From NCBI RefSeq assembly GCF_005239125.1, contig NZ_SZYE01000007.1, forward strand, positions 1-49,544: DNA of 49,544 nucleotides. The letters are read 5' to 3'. Source of the DNA: Cellulomonas hominis. GTDB lineage: Bacteria; Actinomycetota; Actinomycetes; Actinomycetales; Cellulomonadaceae. Both the position numbers and the translations under genes were made by a program. Positions 24,598 to 49,380 of the stretch are shown here, in pieces. The notes below the pieces were generated by a model, which saw only the letters and a list, made by a program, of their open reading frames with translations, searched no databases and had not been told where the DNA came from. The number at the start of each line of letters is the position of its first letter. Position 1 is the first letter of the stretch.

Positions 24598-24674
24598 GGA
24601 CCTGCTGCAGCCGACGGCCGGGAGCCCCACGGGGTGATCGGACGGGGGCGGCGGCGATTGACAACTCCACATGG

Positions 24675-25037
24675 GGGTGATCGGTTTCGACGGTGATCGT
24701 CGAGCCAGGAGAAGCGGGCCGAGGACACACGGTTATCTCGCTAACGCTCCGTGTAAACCCATAGGTGCCGATAACAAGCGCACCGACTTCGCCCTCGCCG
24801 CCTGAGCGAGCCTCGAAGTCCGTCAGCCTGAGCTAGCTTCCGACTCAGATCCTGGCGTCAGCTAGGGAGCCACTGCTCGCAGTCCTCGTCATCGGGGCTG
24901 CGGGGACTTTCAGGTGACTGAGCCCGTCCGCGACTTGTCTGCGTGATCGCGGGGGCTGAGAAAAGCAGCTGCAGACTGCGCCCGGAGAAGCCCTGGTTCC
25001 ACGTCATCGGACGCGGGTTCGATTCCCGCCACCTCCA
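24675..25037 (+). ncRNA. ssrA: tmRNA (transfer-messenger RNA)
   Basis: One-piece tmRNA that rescues stalled ribosomes with SmpB. The 5' end GGGGGTGATCGGTTTCGACG and the 3' T arm GCGGGTTCGATTCCCGC close the tRNA-like part; acceptor strands GGGGGTG (24675-24681) and CACCTCC (25030-25036) pair over 7 bp with the discriminator A at 25037. CCA is not encoded (CTC follows) and must be added. The tag frame runs 24767-24805: resume codon GCC, then GAT AAC AAG CGC ACC GAC TTC GCC CTC GCC GCC TGA, giving ADNKRTDFALAA. The ALAA end is the ClpXP/ClpAP degron. Sequence before the tag contains the usual TAAACCCATAGGT context. Confidence 0.97.
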
Positions 25038-25046
25038 CTCGAGTGC

Positions 25047-38356: not shown

Positions 38357-39910
38357 GTGGACGTCCGTGACCTCCTGGCCGCACCCGACCTCGGGCTGAG
38401 CGTGGTGGCGGCCGAGCCGGACGCCCTCGACCGCCCGGTGACCGCCGCCTACATCACCGACCTGCCGGACCCGTCGCGGTTCCTGTCGACCGGCGACGTG
38501 GTGCTCACGAGCGGCCTGTGGCTCGACCGCCCGGACGGCGCGGCGACGTTCCTCGGCGCCCTGGCGCAGCAGAACGTGGCGGCGCTGATCATCGGGCTCA
38601 TCGAGATCGGCGTGATCCCGGACGAGGTCATCGCCGTGTGCCGCGCCCGCGGGCTGACCCTGCTGACGGTGTCGCCCGGGGTGTCGTTCCGGCGGATCGC
38701 CGACGAGATCGCCGCCCGCCAGCCGGGGTCGGCCGCGGGGCTCGCGAGCCGGACCATGCGGTTCAGCCGGCGGATCGCCGACACGGTGTCCCGCGGCGGC
38801 GGGGTCGCCGAGCTGCTGGCGCAGTTCTCCGCGGAGTTCGCGGTCGGCTGCTGGGTGATCGACGAGACGGGGATGCTGCTCGCGACCGCGGGCGCCGCGC
38901 CCGACCGCGCGCAGGTCGCCGAGCAGTGGAACGCCGTGATCGCCCGCGAGCACGAGAAGCGGGTCATCCTGCCCGGCGAGGGCACCGAGCACGGGCCGGC
39001 GACGATCGTGCGCACCGGCGCGCGGGACCGGTCCGGGTTCTTCGGCTGCTGGGGCGACCACCGGTCGTTCTCCGACGAGGTCGCCCTCGCGCTGGACGCC
39101 GTCGTCGGCGCGCTGCGGGTCGAGATGGAGCTGGCCGCCCGGTGGCGCGAGACCCGGGACGCGCAGGTCGCGGCGCTGATCACGGCGATCCGCGACGCCG
39201 AGGCGTCGCCCGGCGCGATCTCCGCCCGGATGCGCCTGGAGGGCATGGCGCCGTCGGACGAGACGACGATCGTGGCGGCCCGGGTCGACGACCCGCGGTT
39301 CCCGCGCGCCGCCGTGCTGGAGATGCTGCAGCGCACCCTGACCGCCCGGGGGCACCGGGTGCTGGGCTGCCGGTTCGACGACCAGGCGATCCTGCTGGTC
39401 AACGGCGCGGGGGAGGACGAGCGGCCGCTGGCGGACCACCTGGCCGAGGAGTACCTGCTGCTGCTCGACGGCCGGCAGCTGCGGGTCGGCATGAGCGACC
39501 CCGTCAGCGGGGTCAGCCGGCTGAACTCGGCGATCGCCACGGCCGTCGAGCGGGTGCAGAACGCCTCGGGCCCCGAGCCCGTGGTGGTGTCGACGTCGCT
39601 GCACGTGCAGACCCACCGGGCGCTGCTGCGGATGCTGGGGGCGAGCACCCGGTCCGGCTACGCCCGCGAGGTGCTGGCGCCGCTGCTGTCGTACGACGAG
39701 CGGCACAACGCGGACCTGGTGGGCACGCTGCGGGCGTTCCTCGACGGCGGCGGGGCGTGGCAGGAGACGGCGCGGCAGCTGCACCTGCACACGAACACGC
39801 TGCGCTACCGGATCGCCCGCATCGAGGAGCTGACCAACCGGGACATGAGCACCATGTCCGACCGGGTCGACCTGTTCCTCGCGATGACCTGCCTGGACGA
39901 GACGGACTGA
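38357..39910 (+). CDS. PucR family transcriptional regulator
   Basis: A 517-residue regulator. The N-terminal PucR domain (about 1-125: VRDLLAAPDLGLSVVAAEPDALDRPV, FLSTGDVVLTSGLWL) and a central GGDEF-like/CdaR domain precede the C-terminal helix-turn-helix (about 450-512: TLRAFLDGGGAWQETARQL, LHTNTLRYRIARIEELTNRD). Family members activate purine, allantoin or other nitrogen-compound catabolism genes in response to intermediates. Position beside a PPC/adenine-deaminase pair and near a transporter-hydrolase operon makes it the likely local regulator. It is convergent with the PPC gene, 1 nt apart. Confidence 0.9.
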   Translation: MDVRDLLAAPDLGLSVVAAEPDALDRPVTAAYITDLPDPSRFLSTGDVVLTSGLWLDRPDGAATFLGALAQQNVAALIIGLIEIGVIPDEVIAVCRARGLTLLTVSPGVSFRRIADEIAARQPGSAAGLASRTMRFSRRIADTVSRGGGVAELLAQFSAEFAVGCWVIDETGMLLATAGAAPDRAQVAEQWNAVIAREHEKRVILPGEGTEHGPATIVRTGARDRSGFFGCWGDHRSFSDEVALALDAVVGALRVEMELAARWRETRDAQVAALITAIRDAEASPGAISARMRLEGMAPSDETTIVAARVDDPRFPRAAVLEMLQRTLTARGHRVLGCRFDDQAILLVNGAGEDERPLADHLAEEYLLLLDGRQLRVGMSDPVSGVSRLNSAIATAVERVQNASGPEPVVVSTSLHVQTHRALLRMLGASTRSGYAREVLAPLLSYDERHNADLVGTLRAFLDGGGAWQETARQLHLHTNTLRYRIARIEELTNRDMSTMSDRVDLFLAMTCLDETD

Positions 39911-39911
39911 C

Positions 39912-40370
39912 TCAGGCGAACCGCATCGTCGGGATGCCGTACGCCCGCGGGTCGGGGACGCGCAGCATCGCCGGTGCGACGACCTCCTCGATGAGCACCT
40001 CGACCGTGTAGTGGGTCTCGGCGCCGAGGACGTGCCCGGCGAACCCCGCCGCGGCCGCGTTCTTCACCCCGACGGCCAGGTGCAGGTGCGGGGTCGCCAC
40101 GCCGGCGTCCGCGTCCCACAGGATCGTGCCGCTGCCGATGCCCTCGGTGTAGGTCACGGTGACCTCCTGGGGGAGCGGCGGCTCCTGGTCGTCGACCGGC
40201 ACGTCCGCGGCGATGAACCGCGCGGTGCGGAAGGCCCCGGAGAACACCGGGACGAACCCCTGGCGGATGCCGTGCTCCCGGCACGCCTCCGCGAGCGAGG
40301 CCAGCACCTCGTCGCCCGGCTCCAGCACGACCGCCAGGCGCCGGCCGGTGGTCACCTCGCTGCTCTGCAC
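39912..40370 (-). CDS. PPC/DUF296 domain protein
   Basis: A 152-residue stand-alone PPC (plant and prokaryote conserved) domain: LAVVLEPGDEVLASLAEACREHGI, GFVPVFSGAFRTARF, and the conserved metal-site His residues H95, H97 (TPHLHLAVG) and H113 (GFAGHV). In plants the domain is fused to AT-hooks; single bacterial forms are trimeric and of unknown function. The GTG start lies two bases after the stop of the deaminase gene upstream, so they form a tight two-gene operon. Its link to purine or nitrogen metabolism is inference from that. Confidence 0.82.
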   Translation of the reverse strand: MQSSEVTTGRRLAVVLEPGDEVLASLAEACREHGIRQGFVPVFSGAFRTARFIAADVPVDDQEPPLPQEVTVTYTEGIGSGTILWDADAGVATPHLHLAVGVKNAAAAGFAGHVLGAETHYTVEVLIEEVVAPAMLRVPDPRAYGIPTMRFA

Positions 40371-40372
40371 GC

Positions 40373-41392
40373 TCAGACCGCCGCGGGGTCGAGGGCGAGC
40401 GCGGGCACCGCGGCGCCGATCTGCTCGGCGTGCGCGCGGATCTCGGCGAGCAGCGCGGCCTTGCCGGCGTCGGGCAGGAAGGACGACGCCACCGCGTTGG
40501 CGGCGAGCACGCCGACCTGGTCCTCGGTGACGGTCCCCGCCGCGACCAGCGCGCGCACGTTGTCGTCCAGGTAGCCGCCGAAGTAGGCCGGGTCGTCCGA
40601 GTGCACCGACGCCCGCAGGCCCTCGTCGAGCATGACCGCGATCGGGTGGTCGGCGAGGTCGGGGCCGGCGGTGCGCAGGGCGAGGTTCGACAGCGGGCAC
40701 ACGGTGAGCGGGGTGCGGGTGGCGCGCAGGTGCGCGACCAGCTCGACGTCCTCCAGCGCCCGGTTGCCGTGGTCGATCCGCTCGGCGCCGAGGATGTCCA
40801 GGGCCTCCCAGACGTAGTCCGGCCCGCCCTCCTCGCCCGCGTGGGCGACCCGGCGCAGGCCCTCGGCGGCGGCGCGCTCGAACACGTCGCGGAACAGCGC
40901 CGGCGGGAAGCCGACCTCGGTGGAGTCCAGCCCGACGGCGATCAGGTGCTCGCGGTGGGGGAGGACGGCCTCCAGCGCCGCCATCGCGGCGTCGGGGCCG
41001 AGGTGCCGCAGGAAGCAGGCGATCAGCCCGCCGGACATGCCGTGGGCGGCGCGGGCGTCGGCCAGCGCGGCGGACAGGCCGAGCAGCACGTCCTCGACCG
41101 GCACGCCGCGCGCGGTGTGCGACTGCGGGTCGACGAAGATCTCGGCGTGCCGGACGCCGGCCGCCGCGGCGCGCGCCAGGTACGCCGCGCCGAGGTCGTG
41201 GAAGTCCTGCCGGGTGCGCAGCACGTCGAGGTTCGCGTAGTACACGTCCAGGAAGTCCTGCAGGTCGCGGAACGGCGCGCCCCGGCCGGCGCCCGCGGGG
41301 ACGGGCAGCCCGTTGCGGTCAGCCAGCGCGCGGATGAGGTCGGCGTCCAGCGTGCCCTCGATGTGCACGTGCAGTTCAGCCGTCGGCCACAC
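40373..41392 (-). CDS. Adenosine deaminase superfamily protein, adenine-deaminase-like
   Basis: A 339-residue metal-dependent deaminase. Metal and catalytic residues are H8, H10 (ELHVHIEGTL), H184 and E187 (VAHAGEEGG), H208 (RIDHGN), D266 and D267 (VHSDDPAYFGGY). The IEGTL opening and SDDPAYFGGY are those of the fungal-type adenine deaminase branch rather than adenosine deaminase (which has DGA/DGS), so adenine or an N-substituted adenine is the better substrate guess. The GTG at 41392 follows GGGAG; longer frames run into the promoter. It is divergent from the NMT1-transporter operon across 373 nt. Confidence 0.85.
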   Translation of the reverse strand: MWPTAELHVHIEGTLDADLIRALADRNGLPVPAGAGRGAPFRDLQDFLDVYYANLDVLRTRQDFHDLGAAYLARAAAAGVRHAEIFVDPQSHTARGVPVEDVLLGLSAALADARAAHGMSGGLIACFLRHLGPDAAMAALEAVLPHREHLIAVGLDSTEVGFPPALFRDVFERAAAEGLRRVAHAGEEGGPDYVWEALDILGAERIDHGNRALEDVELVAHLRATRTPLTVCPLSNLALRTAGPDLADHPIAVMLDEGLRASVHSDDPAYFGGYLDDNVRALVAAGTVTEDQVGVLAANAVASSFLPDAGKAALLAEIRAHAEQIGAAVPALALDPAAV

Positions 41393-41641
41393 GTCCTGCT
41401 CCCGGTCGTTCGTCGGTCGTCGCGGACAGGTGGTCCACGCTTGCCGGGAAGCCAACCACAGGCCCGTGGCCTGGGGCCTCGTGCGATCCACCAACGACCG
41501 GGCCGCCCCCGGGCGCCCTGCGCTGGGTGATCCGCCGGGCGCGCCACCACCGGCCTCCGCCGTGTGACGCGCACGTGACGCGCTCGGTGGGTCGCACAAC
41601 GGACCGCACCGCTGGGGCGGGGGGAGTTCGGAGGATCCCAC
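41393..41641. promoter_or_regulatory. Divergent control region of deaminase and transporter operons
   Basis: This region between the deaminase start and the leader ORF holds no larger gene. An inverted pair, GTGCGATCCACCA (41481-41493) and the reverse complement of GTGCGACCCACCG (41585-41597), shares 11 of 13 bases and could be a PucR or other regulator site. I see no convincing -10/-35 pair. GGAGG at 41630-41634 is the ribosome-binding site of the leader ORF. Confidence 0.5.
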
Positions 41642-41764
41642 ATGGCGACGGCCGAGCCCGGACCTGTCGAATGGGAGCAGTCGCCGGGTCGCCCCGGTGC
41701 GACCCTCCCCCTGGCACCGCGGCCGCCCGAAGCTGCGGGCGCCGCACGACGTGAACGAGGTTGA
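41642..41764 (+). CDS. Small leader ORF (40 aa) before the transporter operon
   Basis: An ATG frame of 40 codons, MATAEPGPVEWEQ to RRERG, with one of the better ribosome-binding sites of the region (GGAGG, 7-nt spacing). Its TGA ends one base before the GTG of the lipoprotein gene, and the lipoprotein ribosome-binding site (GAGG, 41757-41760) lies inside its last codons. Ribosomes finishing the leader would therefore cover or expose the next start: translational coupling or attenuation. The peptide has no recognisable domain and is Pro/Ala/Arg-rich, so it may simply be a control element. It could also be chance. Confidence 0.45.
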   Translation: MATAEPGPVEWEQSPGRPGATLPLAPRPPEAAGAARRERG

Positions 41765-41765
41765 C

Positions 41766-42836
41766 GTGACCCGCTCCTTCACCGCGCGCCCCGGGCGCCG
41801 GATCGCCGGCCTCGCCGCCGCCGTGGCCGCCGCCGGCCTGCTGCTCTCGGCCTGCTCCTCCGACGACACCGCCGGTTCGACCGGCGACGCGTCGGGCGAC
41901 GCCGGGTCGTTCGACGCGGTGAGCGTCCAGCTCTCCTGGCTGAAGAACCAGCAGTTCGCCGGCGAGTACCTCGCGGTGGAGGACGGCCTGTACACCGACG
42001 CCGGCTTCGCGGACGTGACGCTGACCGCGGGCGGCTCGTCGGCCACCAGCGCCGAGGCGGCCGTCGCCTCCGGCCAGGCGTTCGTCGGCCTGTCCTCCCC
42101 GCTGATCACCGCCCCGGCGATCCAGAGCGGCGCCGCGCTGAAGATCGTCGGCGCGACGTACCAGCAGAACCCGTTCGCGCTCGTGTCGGCCGCCTCGGCG
42201 CCGATCGCCGGCCCCGACGACCTGGCGGGGAAGACCATCGCGGTCTCCGACTCGAACACCCTGGTGTGGAACGCGTTCCTCGCCGCGAACGACATCGACG
42301 CCTCCGAGGTCACCACGGTGCCGCTGTCCGACACCTCCATGCTGACCACCGGCCAGGTGGACGGCTTCATCGGCTACACCACGACCGGCGCCGCCGCGCT
42401 GGCCGCGGCCGGCTTCGAGGCCACCGAGTTCCTGCTCGCCGAGAACGGCCTGCCCATGGTGGGCGAGGTGCTGGTCACCTCCCAGGAGGCCATCGACGAG
42501 CGTCCCGAGGAGGTCAAGGCGTTCCTGCTCGCCACGGCCGAGGGCTGGCGCGCCGCGCTGGACGACCCGGAGCGCGCCGTCGACCTGACCGTGAACACCT
42601 ACGGCAAGGAGCAGCAGTACGACGCCGACGCGATCGCGCTGTCCTTCGACCGCCAGGCCACGCTGATCGAGTCCGACGACACCGCCGCGAACGGCCTGCT
42701 CACCATCAGCCCCGAGCTGCAGGAGGGCACCATCGCCTCGCTCGGCTACGCCGGCGTCGACATCGCCGCCGACGAGCTGTTCGACCTGTCGCTGCTCGAC
42801 GAGGTGTACGCCGAGAACCCGGACCTGCTGTCGTGA
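41766..42836 (+). CDS. NMT1/THI5-like ABC transporter substrate-binding lipoprotein
   Basis: A 356-residue extracytoplasmic binding protein tethered to the membrane. The twin-Arg-like basic start and hydrophobic stretch end in the lipobox LLSAC (C30). The mature part has [33 protein letters not shown], typical of NMT1 proteins that carry pyrimidine-like or sulfonate-like ligands, and [14 protein letters not shown] plus [18 protein letters not shown]. The GTG start has GAGG 6 nt before; another GTG 15 nt upstream is possible. First gene of a run in which six successive genes overlap by 4 bp. Confidence 0.9.
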
Positions 42837-43690
42837 CCGACCCCCAGACCACGCCCGCCCCCGCGCTGCCGGCCCCCTCGGCCGCGGGGGCGGGCGTGCC
42901 CACGTCGGTCGCCGAGCCCGGCATCGAGATCACCGGGCTCGGCAAGGAGTTCCGCTCCGGCCGGCGCTCGGTGACCGCGCTGGAGGACGTCAGCCTGTCC
43001 ACCCCGCGCGGGTCCTTCCTGTCGCTGCTCGGGCCGTCCGGCTGCGGCAAGTCGACGATCCTGCGCATCCTCGCCGGGCTCGAGACGCCGACGTCCGGGA
43101 CGGTGGCCGTCAACGGCACGCCCGTCGCGACCGGGAAGCGCGCCGACGGCATGGGCATCGCGTTCCAGGACCCGGCGCTGCTCCCGTGGCGCTCGGTGCA
43201 GAAGAACATCCGGCTGCCGCTGGAGATCCAGAAGCGCGCGGACGACGGGATCGTCGACGAGCTGATCGAGCTGGTCGGTCTGACGGGCTTCGAGAAGGCC
43301 CGCCCCGCGCACCTGTCCGGCGGCATGCGCCAGCGCGCGTCGATCGCCCGGGCGCTCGCGGTGCGCCCGGACTTCCTGCTGCTGGACGAGCCGTTCGGCG
43401 CCCTGGACGACATGACCCGGCAGCGCCTGAACTTCGAGCTGCAGCGGATCTGGACCGAGCGCTCCGCGACCACGCTGATGGTCACGCACGGCATCGCCGA
43501 GGCCGCCCTGCTCTCGGACCACGTCGCCGTGATGTCCGCGCGCCCGGGCCGGATCGTCGAGATCGTCGAGATCCCGTTCGAGCGGCCGCGCACGCCCGAG
43601 ATGATGCGGACCCCCGAGTTCCACGAGGTGGTCGACCACCTGTCGGGGCTGCTGTTCTCGCCGGGGTCCGCGGGCAAGGGCGTCGAGTGA
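42833..43690 (+). CDS. ABC transporter ATP-binding protein (SsuB/TauB/ThiZ type)
   Basis: The 285-residue ATPase of the importer. A Pro/Ala-rich leader (1-28) precedes Walker [10 protein letters not shown] (67-75); [16 protein letters not shown] (Q loop), signature LSGGMRQ (161-167), Walker B LLLDEP (182-187) and [14 protein letters not shown] (H loop) are intact. The LLPW motif marks the nitrate/sulfonate/pyrimidine importer family. The GTG start overlaps the lipoprotein stop (GTGA) and the stop overlaps the next start (GTGA). Confidence 0.92.
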
Positions 43691-44472
43691 GCGTCGCGCT
43701 CGCGCGGTTCCGCGGCGCGCTGGCGCGCCCGTGGGTCGGCGGCACCGTCGGCATCGTGCTGCTGATCGCCCTGTGGTGGGCGATGACCGCGAACCTGGAG
43801 AACAGCACGTCGTTCCCGTCGCCGGTGGACGTGGCCCGCTCCGCGGTCGCGGACGGCTGGCCGTTCTACGAGGCGAACGTCGTCCCGACGCTGACCCGCG
43901 CCGCCCAGGGCTACCTGTGGGGCAACCTCGCCGGCCTGGCGCTGGCGGCGGTCGTGCTGGTCGTGCCGCGGCTGGAGGACGTGATCACCCAGCTCGGCGT
44001 GATCTCGGCGTGCCTGCCGGTCACCGCGATCGGCCCGATCGTCATGGTCATCTTCGGGGGCCGCGCCTCGTCGATCTTCCTGGGCGCCCTGCTCGTCTTC
44101 TTCACCACGCTCGTCGGCGCCGTCCTCGGGATGCGCTCCGCGAGCCGCAGCTCGCTGGACCTCGTCGCCGCGTACGGCGGCGGCCGGTGGACGCAGATCC
44201 GCAAGGTCCAGCTCATGTCGGCGCTGCCGGCGATCGTCACCGCCCTGCAGGTGGCGGTCCCGGCAGCGCTGCTCGGCGCCGTCGTCGGGGAGTACCTCGG
44301 CGGCATCGACGCGGGCATCGGCGTGGCGCTCAACGCGGCGCAGCGCCAGATCCAGCCCGACCGGGTGTGGGCGCTGAGCATCCTGGCCGGTCTGATCGCG
44401 CTCGGCGGCTACGCGCTCGTCGGGCTGGTCGGGCGGGTCCTGACCCCCTGGGCGAAGGAGACGCGCGGATGA
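43687..44472 (+). CDS. ABC transporter permease (SsuC/ThiX type), first of two
   Basis: A 261-residue channel subunit with six hydrophobic segments and the coupling loop [24 protein letters not shown] (about 159-182), the EAA motif of BPD_transp_1 proteins. [16 protein letters not shown] after the first helix is usual for nitrate/sulfonate/thiamine-precursor permeases. It overlaps both neighbours by 4 bp. A second, different permease follows, so the channel is probably a heterodimer. Confidence 0.9.
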
Positions 44473-45260
44473 GCGGCGGGACGGGGCGGTTCATCGGCCG
44501 CCGGGTCTGGACGCTGGGGCTGGCGGTCGTCGTCGCGCTCGCGGTGTGGGTCGCCGTGCTCGAGGTGTTCGACGTCAGCCCGCTCATCGGCAAGCGACCG
44601 TGGGACGTGTTCGACTACGTCGTCACCGCCGAGGGCGCCGCCGAGCACCGCGCGACGATCGCCGCCGACCTCGCGGTCACGGTGCGGGACGCCGGCATCG
44701 GGTACGTCGTCGGCCTCGCCGCGGCGTTCGGCCTCGCGGTCGTGTTCTGCGTGTCGCCGGTGCTGGAGCGCATCGTCATGCCGACCGCGATGGTGCTGCG
44801 GTCGATCCCGCTCGTCGTGCTCACGCCGCTGATCACGCTGATCTTCGGCATCGGGCAGGCCGGCGTGACCGCCATCGTGATCCTCGTGGTGTTCCTGCCG
44901 GCGCTGGCGAACATCCTGTACGGCCTGCGCAGCGTCTCGGGCGAGCACCGGGACCTGGTGCTCGCGTACGGCGGCTCGTCGTGGACGGTGCTGCGCAAGG
45001 TCGCCCTGCCGGCGGCCGTGCCGTCGACGCTCGCCTCCGCGCGGATCGCGGTCCCGTCGGCGGTCACCGGCGCGATGATCGCCGAGTGGCTGTCGACCGG
45101 CGAGGGCCTGGGCGGGGCCATCTCGAAGGCGGCGGGCTCGTTCGGCTACGACGCGATGTGGGCCTCCGCGATCACCGTCGCGGCCGTGACGATGCTCGCC
45201 TACGCGGTGCTGAGTGTCGTGGACACCCTGGTGCAGGAGCGGATCGGGCAGCTGTCGTGA
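44469..45260 (+). CDS. ABC transporter permease, second of two
   Basis: A 263-residue six-helix permease with its own EAA loop LAYGGSSWTVLRKVALPAAVPSTLASARIAV (about 160-190) and FGIGQAGVTAIVILVVFLPALAN. It is distinct from the first permease along its whole length. Two-permease NMT1 systems are known for riboflavin (RibXY) and some pyrimidine or thiamine precursors, whereas sulfonate and taurine systems use one. ATGA and GTGA overlaps join it to its neighbours. Confidence 0.9.
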   Translation: MSGGTGRFIGRRVWTLGLAVVVALAVWVAVLEVFDVSPLIGKRPWDVFDYVVTAEGAAEHRATIAADLAVTVRDAGIGYVVGLAAAFGLAVVFCVSPVLERIVMPTAMVLRSIPLVVLTPLITLIFGIGQAGVTAIVILVVFLPALANILYGLRSVSGEHRDLVLAYGGSSWTVLRKVALPAAVPSTLASARIAVPSAVTGAMIAEWLSTGEGLGGAISKAAGSFGYDAMWASAITVAAVTMLAYAVLSVVDTLVQERIGQLS

Positions 45261-46876
45261 CCGACGTGACGCTGGTGCTGCGCGGCGGGACCGTCGTCGA
45301 CGGCACCGGCGCGGCACCGGTCGTCGCCGACGTCCTCGTCGCCGGCGACCGGGTCGCGGCCGTCGGCGCCGGCCTCGCCGCCACGGCGCCCGCCGCGGCG
45401 CGCGTGGTCGACGCCGCCGGGCTCGTCGTCGCGCCGGGGTTCATCGACGCGCACACCCACTCCGACGTCGTGCCGTTCATGGCCCAGCCGCAGCCGTTCA
45501 AGGTGCTGCAGGGCGTCACCACCGAGGTGGTCGGCAACTGCGGGAACTCCGCGGCGCCGCTGGTGGACGAGCGCGCGGTCGAGCTGCACCGGCCGATCTC
45601 GTCGACCGTCGCCGCCGGGGTGTCCTCCTGGCCGCGGACGTTCGGGGAGTACCTGGACGCGGTCGAGGAGCACGGCCCGACGACGCACGTCGCCTCCCTG
45701 GTCGGGCACCACACGCTGCGGATCAGCGCGAACGGCATGGCCGAGCGGCTCGCGCCGCGCGCGCTGGACCGGATGGCGGAGCTGGCGGACGCCGCGTTCG
45801 CGGACGGCGCGTTCGGGTTCTCGACCGGGCTGATCTACGCGCCGGGGGTGTACGCGGACACCGACGAGGTCGCCGCGCTGGCCGCCGTCGCCGCCCGCTG
45901 GGGCCGGCCGTACGCCACGCACATGCGCGACGAGGGCGACGGCCTCGCGGCGTCGCTGGCGGAGACGTTCGAGGTCGCGCGGCGGACCGGGGTCCGGGTG
46001 CAGGTGTCGCACTGCAAGGCGGCGGGCCGCCGGAACCACGGCCGGGCCGGCGAGCTGCTCGCCGCGCTCCGCGCCGCGCGCGCGGCGGGGATCGACGCGC
46101 ACGGCGACGCCTACCCGTACACGACGGGGGAGAGCTTCCTCACCGCGCTGCTGCCGGCCGAGGCGCAGGTGGGCGGGCGGCCGGAGCTGGTGCGCCGGCT
46201 GGCCGACCCCGCGACGCGCGCGGCCCTGCTCGCCCGGGCCCTCGCCGGCGGCCCCGGCGCCGGCTCGTGGACCCAGACCACCGCGGCGGGCGTGCTGCTG
46301 AGCATGCACACCGACGCGTCGCTGCTGGGCCGGAGCGTCGCCGACGTCGCCGCCGAGCGAAGCCTGACGGCCTGGGACGCCCTGTGCGACCTCGTGCTCG
46401 CCGACCCCGGCGCGATGATGGTCTACGAGCTGATGGCCGAGGACGACGTGCGCGCGATCCTGGCGGACCCGCTGATCGCGATCGGCTCGGACAACTCGGT
46501 GCCCGTGGGCAACGCGCACCAGCGCGGCTGGGGCTGCTTCCCGACCGTGCTCGGCCGGTACGTGCGCGACCTCGGCGTGCTCGACCTGGCGGAGGCGGTG
46601 CGCAAGATGACGTCGCTGCCCGCCGACGTGCTGGGGCTGCCCGACCGCGGGCGGCTGGTGCCGGGCGCGATCGCCGACGTCGCGGTGGTCGACCCGGCCA
46701 CGGTCGGGCACCCGGGGACGCCGCAGCGGCCGTGGGAGCGGCCCACCGGCGTCGTGTGCACGGTGCTGGCCGGGACCGTCGTCGTGGACGGCGGGGAGTT
46801 CACCGGCGCCCGGGCCGGGCGGGTGCTGCGCGCGGGCCGGCCGGAGCCCGCCGGGCGCGCGGGGGTGCGCGCGTGA
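45257..46876 (+). CDS. N-acyl-D-amino-acid deacylase (D-aminoacylase family)
   Basis: A 539-residue zinc hydrolase of the amidohydrolase superfamily that frees a D-amino acid from its N-acyl form. The metal site is complete against known D-aminoacylases: H66 and H68 (DAHTHSD), C95 (GNCGNS), H222 (ATHMRDEG), H252 (VSHCKAAG), D412 (IGSDNSVP). A small beta-sandwich is formed by both termini (LRGGTVVDGTG and VLAGTVVVDGGEF). It lacks a signal peptide, so it acts after import. It is linked by 4-bp overlaps to the transporter and the PLP enzyme. The exact N-acyl substrate is not readable. Confidence 0.88.
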   Translation: MTDVTLVLRGGTVVDGTGAAPVVADVLVAGDRVAAVGAGLAATAPAAARVVDAAGLVVAPGFIDAHTHSDVVPFMAQPQPFKVLQGVTTEVVGNCGNSAAPLVDERAVELHRPISSTVAAGVSSWPRTFGEYLDAVEEHGPTTHVASLVGHHTLRISANGMAERLAPRALDRMAELADAAFADGAFGFSTGLIYAPGVYADTDEVAALAAVAARWGRPYATHMRDEGDGLAASLAETFEVARRTGVRVQVSHCKAAGRRNHGRAGELLAALRAARAAGIDAHGDAYPYTTGESFLTALLPAEAQVGGRPELVRRLADPATRAALLARALAGGPGAGSWTQTTAAGVLLSMHTDASLLGRSVADVAAERSLTAWDALCDLVLADPGAMMVYELMAEDDVRAILADPLIAIGSDNSVPVGNAHQRGWGCFPTVLGRYVRDLGVLDLAEAVRKMTSLPADVLGLPDRGRLVPGAIADVAVVDPATVGHPGTPQRPWERPTGVVCTVLAGTVVVDGGEFTGARAGRVLRAGRPEPAGRAGVRA

Positions 46877-48093
46877 CCGGCCGGCACACCGCCGCGGCCG
46901 GGACCCCGGCCGGGGGCACCGCCGCCGTCGCCGCCGCGGACCTCGAGCTGCCCGCCATGCTGCTGCGCGACGACGCGATCGCGCACAACCTCCGCGCGAT
47001 GGCCGACTGGTGCCGCGCCGCGGGCGTCCAGCTCGCGCCGCACGCCAAGACGCACATGTCCCGCGACCTGGTCCGCCGGCAGACCGCCGCCGGCGCGTGG
47101 GGGTTCACCGCCGCGACCCCCGCGCAGGTCCGCACGCTCGCCGGCTGGGGCGTGGGCCGGGTGCTGCACGCGAACGTGCTGGTCGACCGCGGGTCGATCG
47201 CCTGGGTGGCCGAGCACCTGCTCGCCGCCGGCTCGGCCACCGAGTACCTCTGCTACGTCGACAGCGACGCCGGGCTGGACCTGCTGCTCGCCGAGCTCGA
47301 CCGGCTCCGGCCCGACCGGCCGCTGCCGCTGCTGCTCGAGCTCGGCTTCCCCGGCGGCCGCACCGGCGTGCGCGACGACGTCGCCGCGCTCGCGCTGGCC
47401 GGGCGGGTCGCCGCGGCGGAGCGGGTCCGGCTCGCGGGCGTCGCGGCGTTCGAGGGCCTGATGCCCGTCGGCGACGACCCCGGTGCGCCGCCCGGCGCGG
47501 CCGACCTGCTCGCCCGCGTGCGGGCGCTCCTCACGGCGGTCACCGAGCAGGGGCTGGTGGCGGGCGTGCCCGTCGTCACCGCGGGCGGCTCGTCGTACTT
47601 CGACCTGGTGGCGCGCGAGCTCGGGCCGGCGATGTGGGACCGTCCGGTCACCACGGTGCTGCGGTCCGGCTGCTACGTCACGCACGACCACGGCGTGTAC
47701 CGGCGCACCTCGCCGCTGGGCGCCGACCGGGGGAGCGCCGCGCTGCGGCCCGCGTTCGAGCTGCGGGCGTCCGTGCTGTCGGCGCCGGAGGACGGGCTGG
47801 TGATCGCCGGGTTCGGGCGCCGCGAGGTGCCGACGGACGACCGGCTGCCGGTCGTGCTGGGCGTGGCGGCGGCCGCGGCGGACACCCCGGCCCCCGACGT
47901 GCGCGGCTGGCGGGTCACCGGCGTCAACGACCACCACGCGTTCCTCCGGGTGCCGCCGGGCACCCGCGTCGCCCCGGGTACCGTGCTGCGGCTGGGGATC
48001 AGCCACCCCTGCGGCGCGTTCGACCGGTGGCGGCACCTCCCGCTCGTGGACGCCGCGGACCGCGTGATCGGCGAGATCACCCCCCGCCTCTAG
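46873..48093 (+). CDS. D-threonine aldolase / D-serine dehydratase-like PLP enzyme
   Basis: A 406-residue fold-type III PLP enzyme. The alanine-racemase-like barrel starts at about 25, with the PLP lysine K59 in PHAKTHMS; ELGFPGGRTG and TAGGSSYFD bind phosphate. The C-terminal domain holds the zinc pair H378 and C380 (SHPCGAF), which distinguishes D-threonine aldolases and eukaryotic-type D-serine dehydratases from alanine racemase. It would cleave a D-beta-hydroxy amino acid to glycine and an aldehyde, or deaminate D-serine. Coming right after the deacylase (4-bp overlap), it is the logical next step for a released D-amino acid. Confidence 0.85.
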   Translation: MTGRHTAAAGTPAGGTAAVAAADLELPAMLLRDDAIAHNLRAMADWCRAAGVQLAPHAKTHMSRDLVRRQTAAGAWGFTAATPAQVRTLAGWGVGRVLHANVLVDRGSIAWVAEHLLAAGSATEYLCYVDSDAGLDLLLAELDRLRPDRPLPLLLELGFPGGRTGVRDDVAALALAGRVAAAERVRLAGVAAFEGLMPVGDDPGAPPGAADLLARVRALLTAVTEQGLVAGVPVVTAGGSSYFDLVARELGPAMWDRPVTTVLRSGCYVTHDHGVYRRTSPLGADRGSAALRPAFELRASVLSAPEDGLVIAGFGRREVPTDDRLPVVLGVAAAAADTPAPDVRGWRVTGVNDHHAFLRVPPGTRVAPGTVLRLGISHPCGAFDRWRHLPLVDAADRVIGEITPRL

Positions 48094-48171
48094 GGCGCCG
48101 CCGCGCCCGCCCGACCACCGCCGGGGCCCGACCGGACCCGGCCCGCACCACCCGCGAAGGACCCGATCGCC

Positions 48172-49380
48172 ATGACCGACAGCACCCCCGAGCACGTCCT
48201 CGACGGCCTCCCGCTCTGGGACGGCGAGCGCGAGGTCGGCCCCGCCCGCCTCGTCTGGTCGGGCGACGAGATCCTCGCCGTCGACCAGGCGCCGGCGCGG
48301 CACGCGGACCTCAGCGTCGTCCCGGGCCTGGTCGACACGCACGTGCACCTCGGCTACCCGGCGGGCGGCCCTGCCGCGGACCCGTCGGCGTGGCCGATCC
48401 TCACCCCGCCGGAGGAGCGCTCGCTGCACGTCGCCGCCAACGCGCTGCGCTGCGCCCGCGCCGGCGTGACCACGGTGCGCGACCTGGCCGCCGACTCGAT
48501 CCAGCTCGCCGTCGGCCGCGCGTTCGACTCCGGGGTGCTCGCCGGGCCGCGGCTGCTGTCGCACGGCCAGGTCGGCATGACCGCCGGGCACGGCGACCTG
48601 TTCGTCCCGCCGCACTACCCGCACCGGCCGCCGACCGCCGACAGCCCCGACGAGTGCCGCCGGCTGGTCCGCGTCTGGGCCCGGTCCGGGGCGGCGGGTG
48701 TGAAGATCTACACCTCCGGCGGCGTGCTCTCCATGGGCGACAAGGTCGGCTGGCGGAACCAGACCACCGAGGAGATCCGCACCACGGTCGACGAGGCGCA
48801 CGCGCTCGGCATGCTGGTCGCCGCGCACACGCACTCCGCCGAGGGGCTCGACATCGCGCTCGCCGAGGGCGTCGACTCGATCGAGCACGGCACCGCGATC
48901 GCCGAGCAGCACGTCGCGGCCCTCGTGGAGCGCGATCTGCCCGTCGCGCCGACGCTGCTGATCAACGACATCATCGCCGAGGCCCGCCGCCCGGTGTCCG
49001 CCGAGGCGCAGGCGAAGGCCCGCGACGTCGTCGCGCTCCGGGACGCCGGGTTCGCCCGCGCGGCCGAGGCGGGCGTCCGGTTCGTGCTCGGCACCGACGC
49101 CTCCGGGCAGTTCGTCGGGTTCGGCGACCAGATGGAGGAGGTCCGCGCGATGGCGGCGATGTTCGGCTGGACGCCCGCCCGGGCGCTCGCCGCCGCCACC
49201 TCGGACGCGGCCGACGCGATCCGGATGGGGTCGGTCACCGGCCGGCTCCGCCCCGGGCTGGGCAGCGACTTCGTCGTGCTGCGCGGCCGGCCCTGGGAGG
49301 ACGTCGACGCGCTGCGGGTGGAGAACATCGTCGCCGTGGTGTCGCGCGGCCGGGTCGTCGCCGGCGCGCTGCCGGCCTGA
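48172..49380 (+). CDS. Metal-dependent amidohydrolase (prolidase/imidazolonepropionase-like)
   Basis: A 402-residue amidohydrolase. Ligands are H57 and H59 (DTHVHLG), K178 as the probable carboxylated bridging lysine (VKIYTSGG), H219 (AAHTHS), H239 (SIEHG) and D309 (GTDASG). The fold subgroup includes Xaa-Pro dipeptidases, N-acyl-Pro hydrolases and imidazolonepropionase-like enzymes; its GQVGMTAGHGDLF segment is characteristic of the group. It starts 78 nt after the PLP enzyme, with no terminator seen, so it probably belongs to the same transcript. A second amide-cleaving step is the likely role. Confidence 0.87.
   Translation: MTDSTPEHVLDGLPLWDGEREVGPARLVWSGDEILAVDQAPARHADLSVVPGLVDTHVHLGYPAGGPAADPSAWPILTPPEERSLHVAANALRCARAGVTTVRDLAADSIQLAVGRAFDSGVLAGPRLLSHGQVGMTAGHGDLFVPPHYPHRPPTADSPDECRRLVRVWARSGAAGVKIYTSGGVLSMGDKVGWRNQTTEEIRTTVDEAHALGMLVAAHTHSAEGLDIALAEGVDSIEHGTAIAEQHVAALVERDLPVAPTLLINDIIAEARRPVSAEAQAKARDVVALRDAGFARAAEAGVRFVLGTDASGQFVGFGDQMEEVRAMAAMFGWTPARALAAATSDAADAIRMGSVTGRLRPGLGSDFVVLRGRPWEDVDALRVENIVAVVSRGRVVAGALPA

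What the first reader, a model, noticed from the sequence alone, without database searches (positions are those of the whole stretch)
38357..49380. PucR-linked transporter and D-amino-acid release pathway
A seven-gene run (lipoprotein, ATPase, two permeases, D-aminoacylase, D-threonine-aldolase-like PLP enzyme, amidohydrolase), almost all translationally coupled, faces a PPC plus adenine-deaminase-like pair and a PucR activator. I know of no described pathway with this combination. The order suggests import of an N-acyl (or cyclic amide) D-beta-hydroxy amino acid conjugate, amide cleavage, then retro-aldol or dehydratase breakdown; the deaminase hints that the molecule carries or resembles an aminopurine or other amino-heterocycle.
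Basis: inference. Interest (0 to 1): 0.7.

Follow-up and report, generated by a model that had tools for sequence, protein, structure and literature searches.

The report
Purine-linked D-amino-acid conjugate operon
A conserved set of ten bacterial genes looks built to take up a purine-like compound and to release and break down a purine base and an unusual D-type amino acid, though the compound itself is not yet known.

Summary
In detail: ten genes (pucR, ppc, ada, sbp, atp, pm1, pm2, dac, dsd, amh) lie at 38357-49380 of a Cellulomonas contig, and five of six junctions in the seven-gene run overlap by 4 nt.

It is one unit. In the genus, the close ada and dsd occur in exactly the same 16 of 81 genomes; the cassette recurs in a Microbacterium and a MAG, with variants elsewhere.

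Relatives of the binding protein lie beside purine genes in 37 of 53 loci, against 0 of 66 control loci. None of the 16 cassette genomes has uricase, or XdhC over cut-off.

The PLP enzyme is of D-serine-deaminase type (His-x-Cys metal site), not aldolase type. The D-aminoacylase keeps the residues that hold an N-acyl amino acid, has a cassette-specific Glu, and has Ser where the related OngB binds a C3 hydroxyl.

Best reading: import of an aminopurine-linked N-acyl or ureido D-beta-hydroxy amino acid, amide cleavage, then deamination of both halves. The substrate is inferred, not shown. Precedents are OngB/OngC (oxidised chitin) and UacY (reductive uric acid pathway). A composite nitrogen-scavenging regulon remains a serious rival.

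The parts
38357..39910 (+). pucR: PucR-type transcription activator, presumed local regulator
   Evidence: PF07905 and PF13556 over cut-off; beside the cassette in most but not all loci (not found in L015 and L030)
39912..40370 (-). ppc: PCC/DUF296 domain protein, role unknown
   Evidence: PF03479 E 2.3e-14; start
40373..41392 (-). ada: adenine-deaminase-type A_deaminase
   Evidence: PF00962; best PDB chains 3rys (333.9 bits) and 3ou8 (318.3 bits), sharing SDDPAYFGGY; NCBIfam names it adenosine deaminase (TIGR01430 over cut-off)
41483..41499 (+). Intergenic block largely conserved in 11 aligned cassette loci (GCGATCSACCAACGACC), possible operator
41627..41647 (+). Intergenic block TTCGGASGATCCCACATGGCG, conserved in all 11 aligned cassette loci; possible operator or promoter element
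   Evidence: only copy in the genome with up to 3 mismatches
41766..42836 (+). sbp: NMT1-family binding lipoprotein
   Evidence: PF09084 E 5.2e-38; lipobox LSAC in the translation; start
42833..43690 (+). atp: ABC ATPase
   Evidence: PF00005
43687..44472 (+). pm1: ABC permease
   Evidence: PF00528
44469..45260 (+). pm2: ABC permease
   Evidence: PF00528
45257..46876 (+). dac: D-aminoacylase-type deacylase
   Evidence: 1m7j D-aminoacylase 305.9 bits; key residues Y194, K254, Y286, D412, R423 kept
46873..48093 (+). dsd: fold-type III PLP enzyme of D-serine deaminase type
   Evidence: PF14031; 3gwq E 6.3e-66; PHAKTH and SHPC motifs
48172..49380 (+). amh: Xaa-Pro dipeptidase/Cc2672-type amidohydrolase
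   Evidence: PF01979; NF051886 214.5 bits, below its cut-off of 500; 3mtw E 2.8e-49

Best explanation
The cassette is a dedicated uptake and breakdown unit for an aminopurine-linked N-acyl (amide or ureido) conjugate of a D-beta-hydroxy amino acid. The NMT1-type ABC importer brings in the compound. The D-aminoacylase dac hydrolyses the amide or ureido bond, with amh as a second amidohydrolase acting on a related form (dipeptide, cyclic form or L epimer). dsd eliminates ammonia from the freed D-beta-hydroxy amino acid, giving a 2-oxo acid. ada converts the freed adenine-type base to hypoxanthine, probably for salvage, since no uricase and no XdhC over cut-off was found in the cassette genomes. 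Shown here: gene set, conservation and linkage, purine neighbourhood of the importer's relatives, active-site motifs. Inferred: the substrate, that both halves come from one molecule, the order of steps, stereochemistry, and regulation by PucR.
For: Close ada and close dsd in the identical 16 of 81 genus genomes; close SBP in 13 genomes of the relatives sample, all among these 16. Same order in Cellulomonas loci, L017 and L018. Purine markers beside SBP relatives in 37 of 53 loci, 0 of 66 control loci; SBP relative with an ada of the same type and a nucleoside hydrolase in L118, L160, L162, L163. dac keeps the five acyl/carboxylate/catalytic residues in 73 of 73 aligned homologues; Glu292 in 13 of 13 cassette rows and 0 of 60 others; Ser293 in 13 of 13, Thr in 60 of 60 others, where OngB uses Ser to hold the C3 hydroxyl. 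L198, without dsd, has Glu-Thr. dsd has the dehydratase-type His-Pro-Cys motif, kept in 10 of 10 other cassette loci.
Against: No binding or activity data. Co-occurrence and coupling do not prove a common substrate. Variant L198 lacks dsd and the adenine-type ada, so those halves are separable. ppc is unexplained. TIGR01430 names ada adenosine deaminase over cut-off. The cassette SBPs lack a TNE motif shared by the other rows of one alignment, so their ligand may differ from that of the relatives. Six of the 53 SBP loci supplied the marker sequences and the controls were not matched for taxonomy. Weak XdhC hits below cut-off occur in 4 of the 16 cassette genomes.
Confidence: 0.4

Rival explanations
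1. Composite nitrogen-scavenging regulon: importer and ada handle adenine or another purine, while dac, dsd and amh independently recover nitrogen from N-acyl-D-amino acids or D-containing peptides; they share only PucR control.
For: PucR is a nitrogen/purine regulator family (Pfam name). ppc plus ada stand alone in L158. dac and an amh-like gene (34-36%) without ada or this importer are neighbours in L021, L033 and L034, beside peptide-type ABC ATPases.
Against: The parts are inherited together in the genus, in one coupled run; cassette dac enzymes carry residues not seen in the other 60 homologues, suggesting a special substrate.
Confidence: 0.3
2. A purine-ring pathway of UacY type: dac removes a ureido group from a D-ureido acid derived from an opened purine ring, and dsd then acts as the PLP lyase in place of YgeX.
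For: UacY is a D-aminoacylase homologue assigned to 2-ureido cleavage in C. difficile, followed by the PLP lyase YgeX (PMC12507026, sections 5, 9, 13). Importer relatives sit beside purine genes. dac has Ser414 in place of AfDam Leu368.
Against: XdhC over cut-off in 0 of 16 cassette genomes and YgfK over cut-off in 0 of 81 genus genomes (sub-cut-off partial matches occur in all 81). No SsnA, HyuA or YgeX among the ten genes. Ser at that site also occurs in 19 of 60 other homologues.
Confidence: 0.1
3. Oxidised-chitin pathway of ong type: the substrate is GlcNAc1A, dac is the deacetylase and dsd the deaminase.
For: Same enzyme pair as OngB/OngC (PMC9537276, passages); Ser at the C3-hydroxyl position as in OngB.
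Against: OngB chains score lower (208-211 bits) than D-aminoacylase (306 bits). None of the ten genes is a KDG kinase, RidA, GH20 or SSS transporter. OngB Ser291 is Glu in dac. Importer relatives and ada point to purines.
Confidence: 0.07

Closest known systems
ong cluster for GlcNAc1A (OngB/OngC), Pseudoalteromonas prydzensis (PMC9537276, PMC12017989)
   Same: D-aminoacylase-fold deacylase followed by a fold-III PLP deaminase; Ser at the C3-hydroxyl-binding site
   Different: No KDG kinase, RidA, GH20 or SSS transporter among the ten genes; NMT1 importer, ada and amh added; Glu292 in place of OngB Ser291
UacY branch of the reductive uric acid pathway, C. difficile (PMC12507026)
   Same: D-aminoacylase homologue and a PLP ammonia-releasing enzyme in a purine setting
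   Different: Different PLP fold family (YgeX is PF00291 in that paper; dsd has PF14031); no YgfK over cut-off in the genus and no XdhC over cut-off in cassette genomes; ada and importer added
NMT1-type importers of actinobacterial purine catabolic clusters (loci)
   Same: SBP about 40-50% identical, ATPase and two permeases in the same order, many beside xanthine dehydrogenase, XdhC, uricase, allantoinase or guanine deaminase homologues
   Different: TNE motif absent in the cassette-clade SBPs; amidohydrolases and a D-serine deaminase homologue downstream instead of oxidative purine enzymes
L198-type cassette in another family (G253)
   Same: pucR, ppc, sbp, atp, pm1, pm2, dac (66%), amh (58%)
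   Different: No dsd or adenine-type ada; has a TRZ/ATZ-type aminohydrolase, a cytidine-deaminase-fold deaminase, an NtaA-type monooxygenase and an adenosine-deaminase-like frame

Membership tests
D-aminoacylase (AfDam/BbDam/OngB group) | Acyl/alpha-carboxylate/catalytic residues (AfDam Y192, K252, Y283, D366, R377) | tested here: met
   Kept in the window protein and in 73 of 73 aligned homologues; roles from PMC12017989
D-aminoacylase (AfDam/BbDam/OngB group) | Ser289 of the carboxylate/amide-binding set, said to be strictly conserved | tested here: not met
   Glu292 in the window and 13 of 13 cassette rows; so a fold and mechanism relative with a changed site
D-aminoacylase (AfDam/BbDam/OngB group) | Activity on N-acyl-D-amino acids | not testable with these tools
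   Needs an assay
Fold-III D-serine dehydratase/deaminase | Metal held by His and Cys, without the aldolase base His193 | tested here: met
   SHPC, and Val aligned with AxDTA His193 (criteria in PMC4401734 passages)
D-threonine aldolase | Metal held by His and Asp, base His193 | tested here: not met
Adenine deaminase of the A_deaminase family | Closest to the 3ou8/3rys group, SDDPAYFGGY motif | tested here: met
   motif's link to adenine specificity is recalled; title of Goble et al. 2011 on Pa0148 seen in a reference list, and that 3ou8 is Pa0148 is recalled
Adenine deaminase of the A_deaminase family | Acts on adenine, not adenosine | not testable with these tools
   NCBIfam TIGR01430 (over cut-off) says adenosine deaminase; NF006850 409.4 bits against 419
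Xaa-Pro dipeptidase/Cc2672 amidohydrolase | Family score and aligned metal-site motifs | tested here: inconclusive
   Metal-site motifs aligned with 3mtw (roles recalled), but NF051886 214.5 bits is below its cut-off of 500
Oxidative chitin (ong) pathway | KDG kinase, RidA, GH20 and SSS transporter in the cluster | tested here: not met
   None among the ten genes; the rest of the genome was not searched for them
Reductive uric acid pathway | YgfK and an XDH-type enzyme | tested here: not met
   YgfK over cut-off in 0 of 81; XdhC over cut-off in 0 of 16 cassette genomes; the alternative UacX was not searched for
HMP/thiamine or riboflavin NMT1 binder | Close match to a binder with that ligand | tested here: not met
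   Only 4nmy (E 6e-10) and 3ix1 (E 6.8e-7) matched; no known-ligand match at close identity

The most novel reading that the evidence does not exclude
The cassette salvages the tRNA hypermodification t6A/ct6A (N6-threonylcarbamoyl-adenine and its hydantoin form), for which I know of no catabolic pathway. The importer takes up the modified base; amh cleaves the L-threonyl ureido bond or opens the hydantoin; dac cleaves the form epimerised at the alpha carbon (D-allo-threonyl); dsd deaminates D-allo-threonine and ada the freed adenine. This would account for every enzyme gene, for the changed Glu292/Ser414 of dac, for Ser293 facing a beta hydroxyl, and for having both an L-type and a D-type amidohydrolase. 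It rests on gene content and chemistry only; the epimerisation to D-allo-threonine is recalled (one search shows only a table line on ct6A ring opening and epimerisation), and nothing here shows t6A as ligand.
Probability: 0.07. Interest if true: 0.85.

Novelty: new variant of a known kind. Interest (0 to 1): 0.52.

Why it matters
It joins two chemistries that I did not find together in the open library searched, apart from the inferred UacY role: a purine-type importer with adenine deaminase, and an N-acyl-D-amino-acid deacylase with a D-serine-type deaminase. If one molecule feeds both, there is an undescribed natural purine conjugate or an undescribed way to recycle a modified base. It also places a group of NMT1 binding proteins of this order beside purine catabolism, which ligand-binding tests can check directly.

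Tried and rejected
Retro-aldol step: rejected, because dsd has the His-x-Cys site and lacks the aldolase base. GlcNAc1A and reductive uric acid pathways: kept only as low rivals (membership tests).

A wider regulon: the conserved intergenic block occurs once in the genome with up to 3 mismatches, so no further targets were found.

UacY identity: not testable, since no UacY sequence was at hand. Loci of dac homologues with Ser at the Leu368 site from Clostridia-like records (L045, L047, L050, L074, L087) showed none of the markers.

Considered from memory only, untested: gougerotin-type nucleoside peptides (N-acyl-D-serine) and 3-hydroxyglutamate of B-type peptidoglycan as substrates.

Literature: searches (open-licence PMC library). 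Nearest papers were PMC12507026 and PMC9537276. A gene inserted between pucR and ppc in L011 and L014 looks like a glycosyltransferase by my reading of the translation; not pursued.

Limits: no structure prediction, so pocket claims rest on alignment. dac was searched in an order sample of 386 genomes (5 matches: four Cellulomonas with the own genome, and G253), not across the whole genus; amh, ppc and pucR were not searched genome-wide. Three of the 13 cassette dac rows (L014, L016, L019) end before a dsd could be seen in the same locus. Gene calls in fetched loci come from a simple GC-frame script of mine.
Full report
WHAT IS THERE. The window is a whole contig (C385, 49,544 bases) of a 4.2 Mb genome; most of its closest cassette relatives are named Cellulomonas. 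The ten genes are listed under parts. Family scans give PucR, PCC/DUF296, A_deaminase, an NMT1 lipoprotein, an ABC ATPase, two permeases, a D-aminoacylase-type Amidohydro_3 enzyme, a D-ser_dehydrat-domain PLP enzyme and an Amidohydro_1 enzyme. Five of the six junctions of the seven-gene run overlap by 4 nt; the sixth has a 78 bp gap.

IS IT ONE UNIT? ada and dsd were each searched in 81 genus genomes. ada has close matches (72% or more) in 16 and weaker ones (54%) in three more. dsd has close matches (67% or more) in 16; paralogues at 45-49% occur in these and in eight further genomes. The two close sets are identical. In the relatives sample of 98 genomes the close SBP (79% or more) is in 13, all among these 16. 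tblastn on fetched loci shows the same order in ten Cellulomonas-like loci (L009-L016, L025, L030; some cut by contig or locus ends, pucR not found in L015 and L030), in Microbacterium sp. Marseille-Q6965 (L017, ppc not found) and in a MAG (L018, ppc not found, pucR after amh). L019 has a more distant NMT1 transporter with pucR, ppc, ada and dac, and ends inside dac. L198, from another family (G253), keeps pucR, ppc, sbp, atp, pm1, pm2, dac and amh but lacks dsd and the adenine-type ada. It has instead a TRZ/ATZ-type aminohydrolase, a cytidine-deaminase-fold deaminase, an NtaA-type flavin monooxygenase and an adenosine-deaminase-like frame.

THE TRANSPORTER. PDB matches to the SBP are weak, so its relatives were used. 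A search of 396 genomes of the order gave matches in 68. With regions fetched, 53 loci were examined. 37 of 53 carry at least one purine marker (xanthine dehydrogenase, XdhC, uricase, HIU hydrolase, allantoinase, allantoate amidohydrolase, guanine or 8-oxoguanine deaminase, nucleoside hydrolase); 0 of 66 dac-centred control loci do. Marker names: uricase, allantoinase, 8-oxoguanine deaminase and allantoate amidohydrolase are over NCBIfam cut-offs; XDH and XdhC match related models below cut-off; HIU hydrolase, the short guanine deaminase and the nucleoside hydrolase had no match at E 1e-30 and are my reading, with weak support for the last from a homologue in L160. Caveats: six of the 53 loci supplied the markers, L198 is itself a cassette, some loci share a genome, and controls were not matched for taxonomy or length. 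In L118, L160, L162 and L163 a related SBP lies with an ada of the same type and a nucleoside hydrolase. L187 has two TIGR01178-type and one guanine-deaminase-type enzyme, all below cut-off; it scored as a miss. A tree of 66 SBPs puts the cassette SBPs with L120, L198 and L187 in a 13-row clade (100/98); these three have long branches and the place of L187 inside it is weak (86/22). In a 14-row alignment the other nine rows share TNE, while the five cassette-clade rows differ, so the ligand probably differs.

PURINE CATABOLISM IN THE HOST. Uricase is in 25 of 81 and XdhC (over cut-off) in 26 of 81 genus genomes; neither is in any of the 16 cassette genomes, though 4 of the 16 (G015, G017, G035, G049) have weak XdhC hits below cut-off. 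No overlap with uricase has chance 0.0012 if genomes were independent, which they are not. Hypoxanthine made by ada is therefore more likely salvaged than burnt.

THE DEACYLASE. Sites were read from an alignment of 73 homologues guided by the AfDam chain, roles from sections 7 and 10 of PMC12017989. Five residues for acyl and carboxylate binding and catalysis are invariant. At AfDam Ser289 the cassette enzymes have Glu (13 of 13; 0 of 60 others). At Thr290 they have Ser (13 of 13; Thr in 60 of 60 others); OngB has Ser here and uses it for the C3 hydroxyl. L198, without dsd, has Glu-Thr. AfDam Leu368 is Ser in the cassette enzymes, as in 19 of 60 others. This fits a beta-hydroxy amino acid with an unusual or polar acyl group. 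It does not identify the substrate.

THE PLP ENZYME. It is nearest to 3gwq, named D-serine deaminase. The AxDTA paper (passages) gives His and Asp plus the potential base His193 for the aldolase, and His and Cys without that base for the dehydratase. dsd has His-Pro-Cys and a Val aligned with His193; SHPC is kept in 10 of 10 further cassette loci. Dehydration/deamination is the likely reaction.

THE OTHER ENZYMES. ada aligns best with 3rys and 3ou8 and shares SDDPAYFGGY; NCBIfam calls it adenosine deaminase. amh aligns with Cc2672 and other peptidase- or ochratoxinase-type amidohydrolases. ppc is unexplained; with ada it also forms a pair alone in L158. A conserved intergenic block lies between ada and sbp and is unique in the genome.

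HOW IT MOST LIKELY WORKS. Import; amide or ureido hydrolysis by dac, with amh on a related form; dsd on the amino acid; ada on the base. That both halves come from one molecule is inference from co-occurrence, coupling and the importer's kin. Confidence 0.4; the composite regulon is the main rival at 0.3.

PRECEDENTS AND NOVELTY. OngB/OngC (PMC9537276, passages; PMC12017989, abstract and two sections) and UacY (PMC12507026, abstract and sections 5, 9, 13) show that the chemistry is plausible; neither has this gene set. Searches found no description of the combination in the open library.

Noticed in passing
L198:1259-14366 (G253): Variant cassette with an NtaA-type flavin monooxygenase and three other deaminase-type genes in place of dsd and adenine-type ada; the monooxygenase may hint at another conjugate.
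   Followed up: partly
L187:1-9161 (G163): Related NMT1 importer next to two TIGR01178-type adenine deaminases, a guanine-deaminase-type enzyme and a phosphoribosyltransferase-like gene, all below NCBIfam cut-offs.
   Followed up: partly
window 41483-41499 and 41627-41647: Conserved intergenic blocks between ada and sbp in 11 aligned cassette loci; the second is unique in the genome. Possible PucR operator or promoter.
   Followed up: partly
L025: Record titled Cellulosimicrobium cellulans DE0111 holds a cassette 89-98% identical to the window's; the record may be a misnamed Cellulomonas.
   Followed up: no
L158:8673-10128 (G282): ppc and ada as a pair without transporter or amidohydrolases, suggesting that the two proteins work together.
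   Followed up: no
L011 and L014, between pucR and ppc: A gene of about 500 aa that looks like a glycosyltransferase sits inside the cassette in these two loci only among those listed.
   Followed up: no
window 24673-25040: tmRNA gene with tag peptide ADNKRTDFALAA.
   Followed up: no
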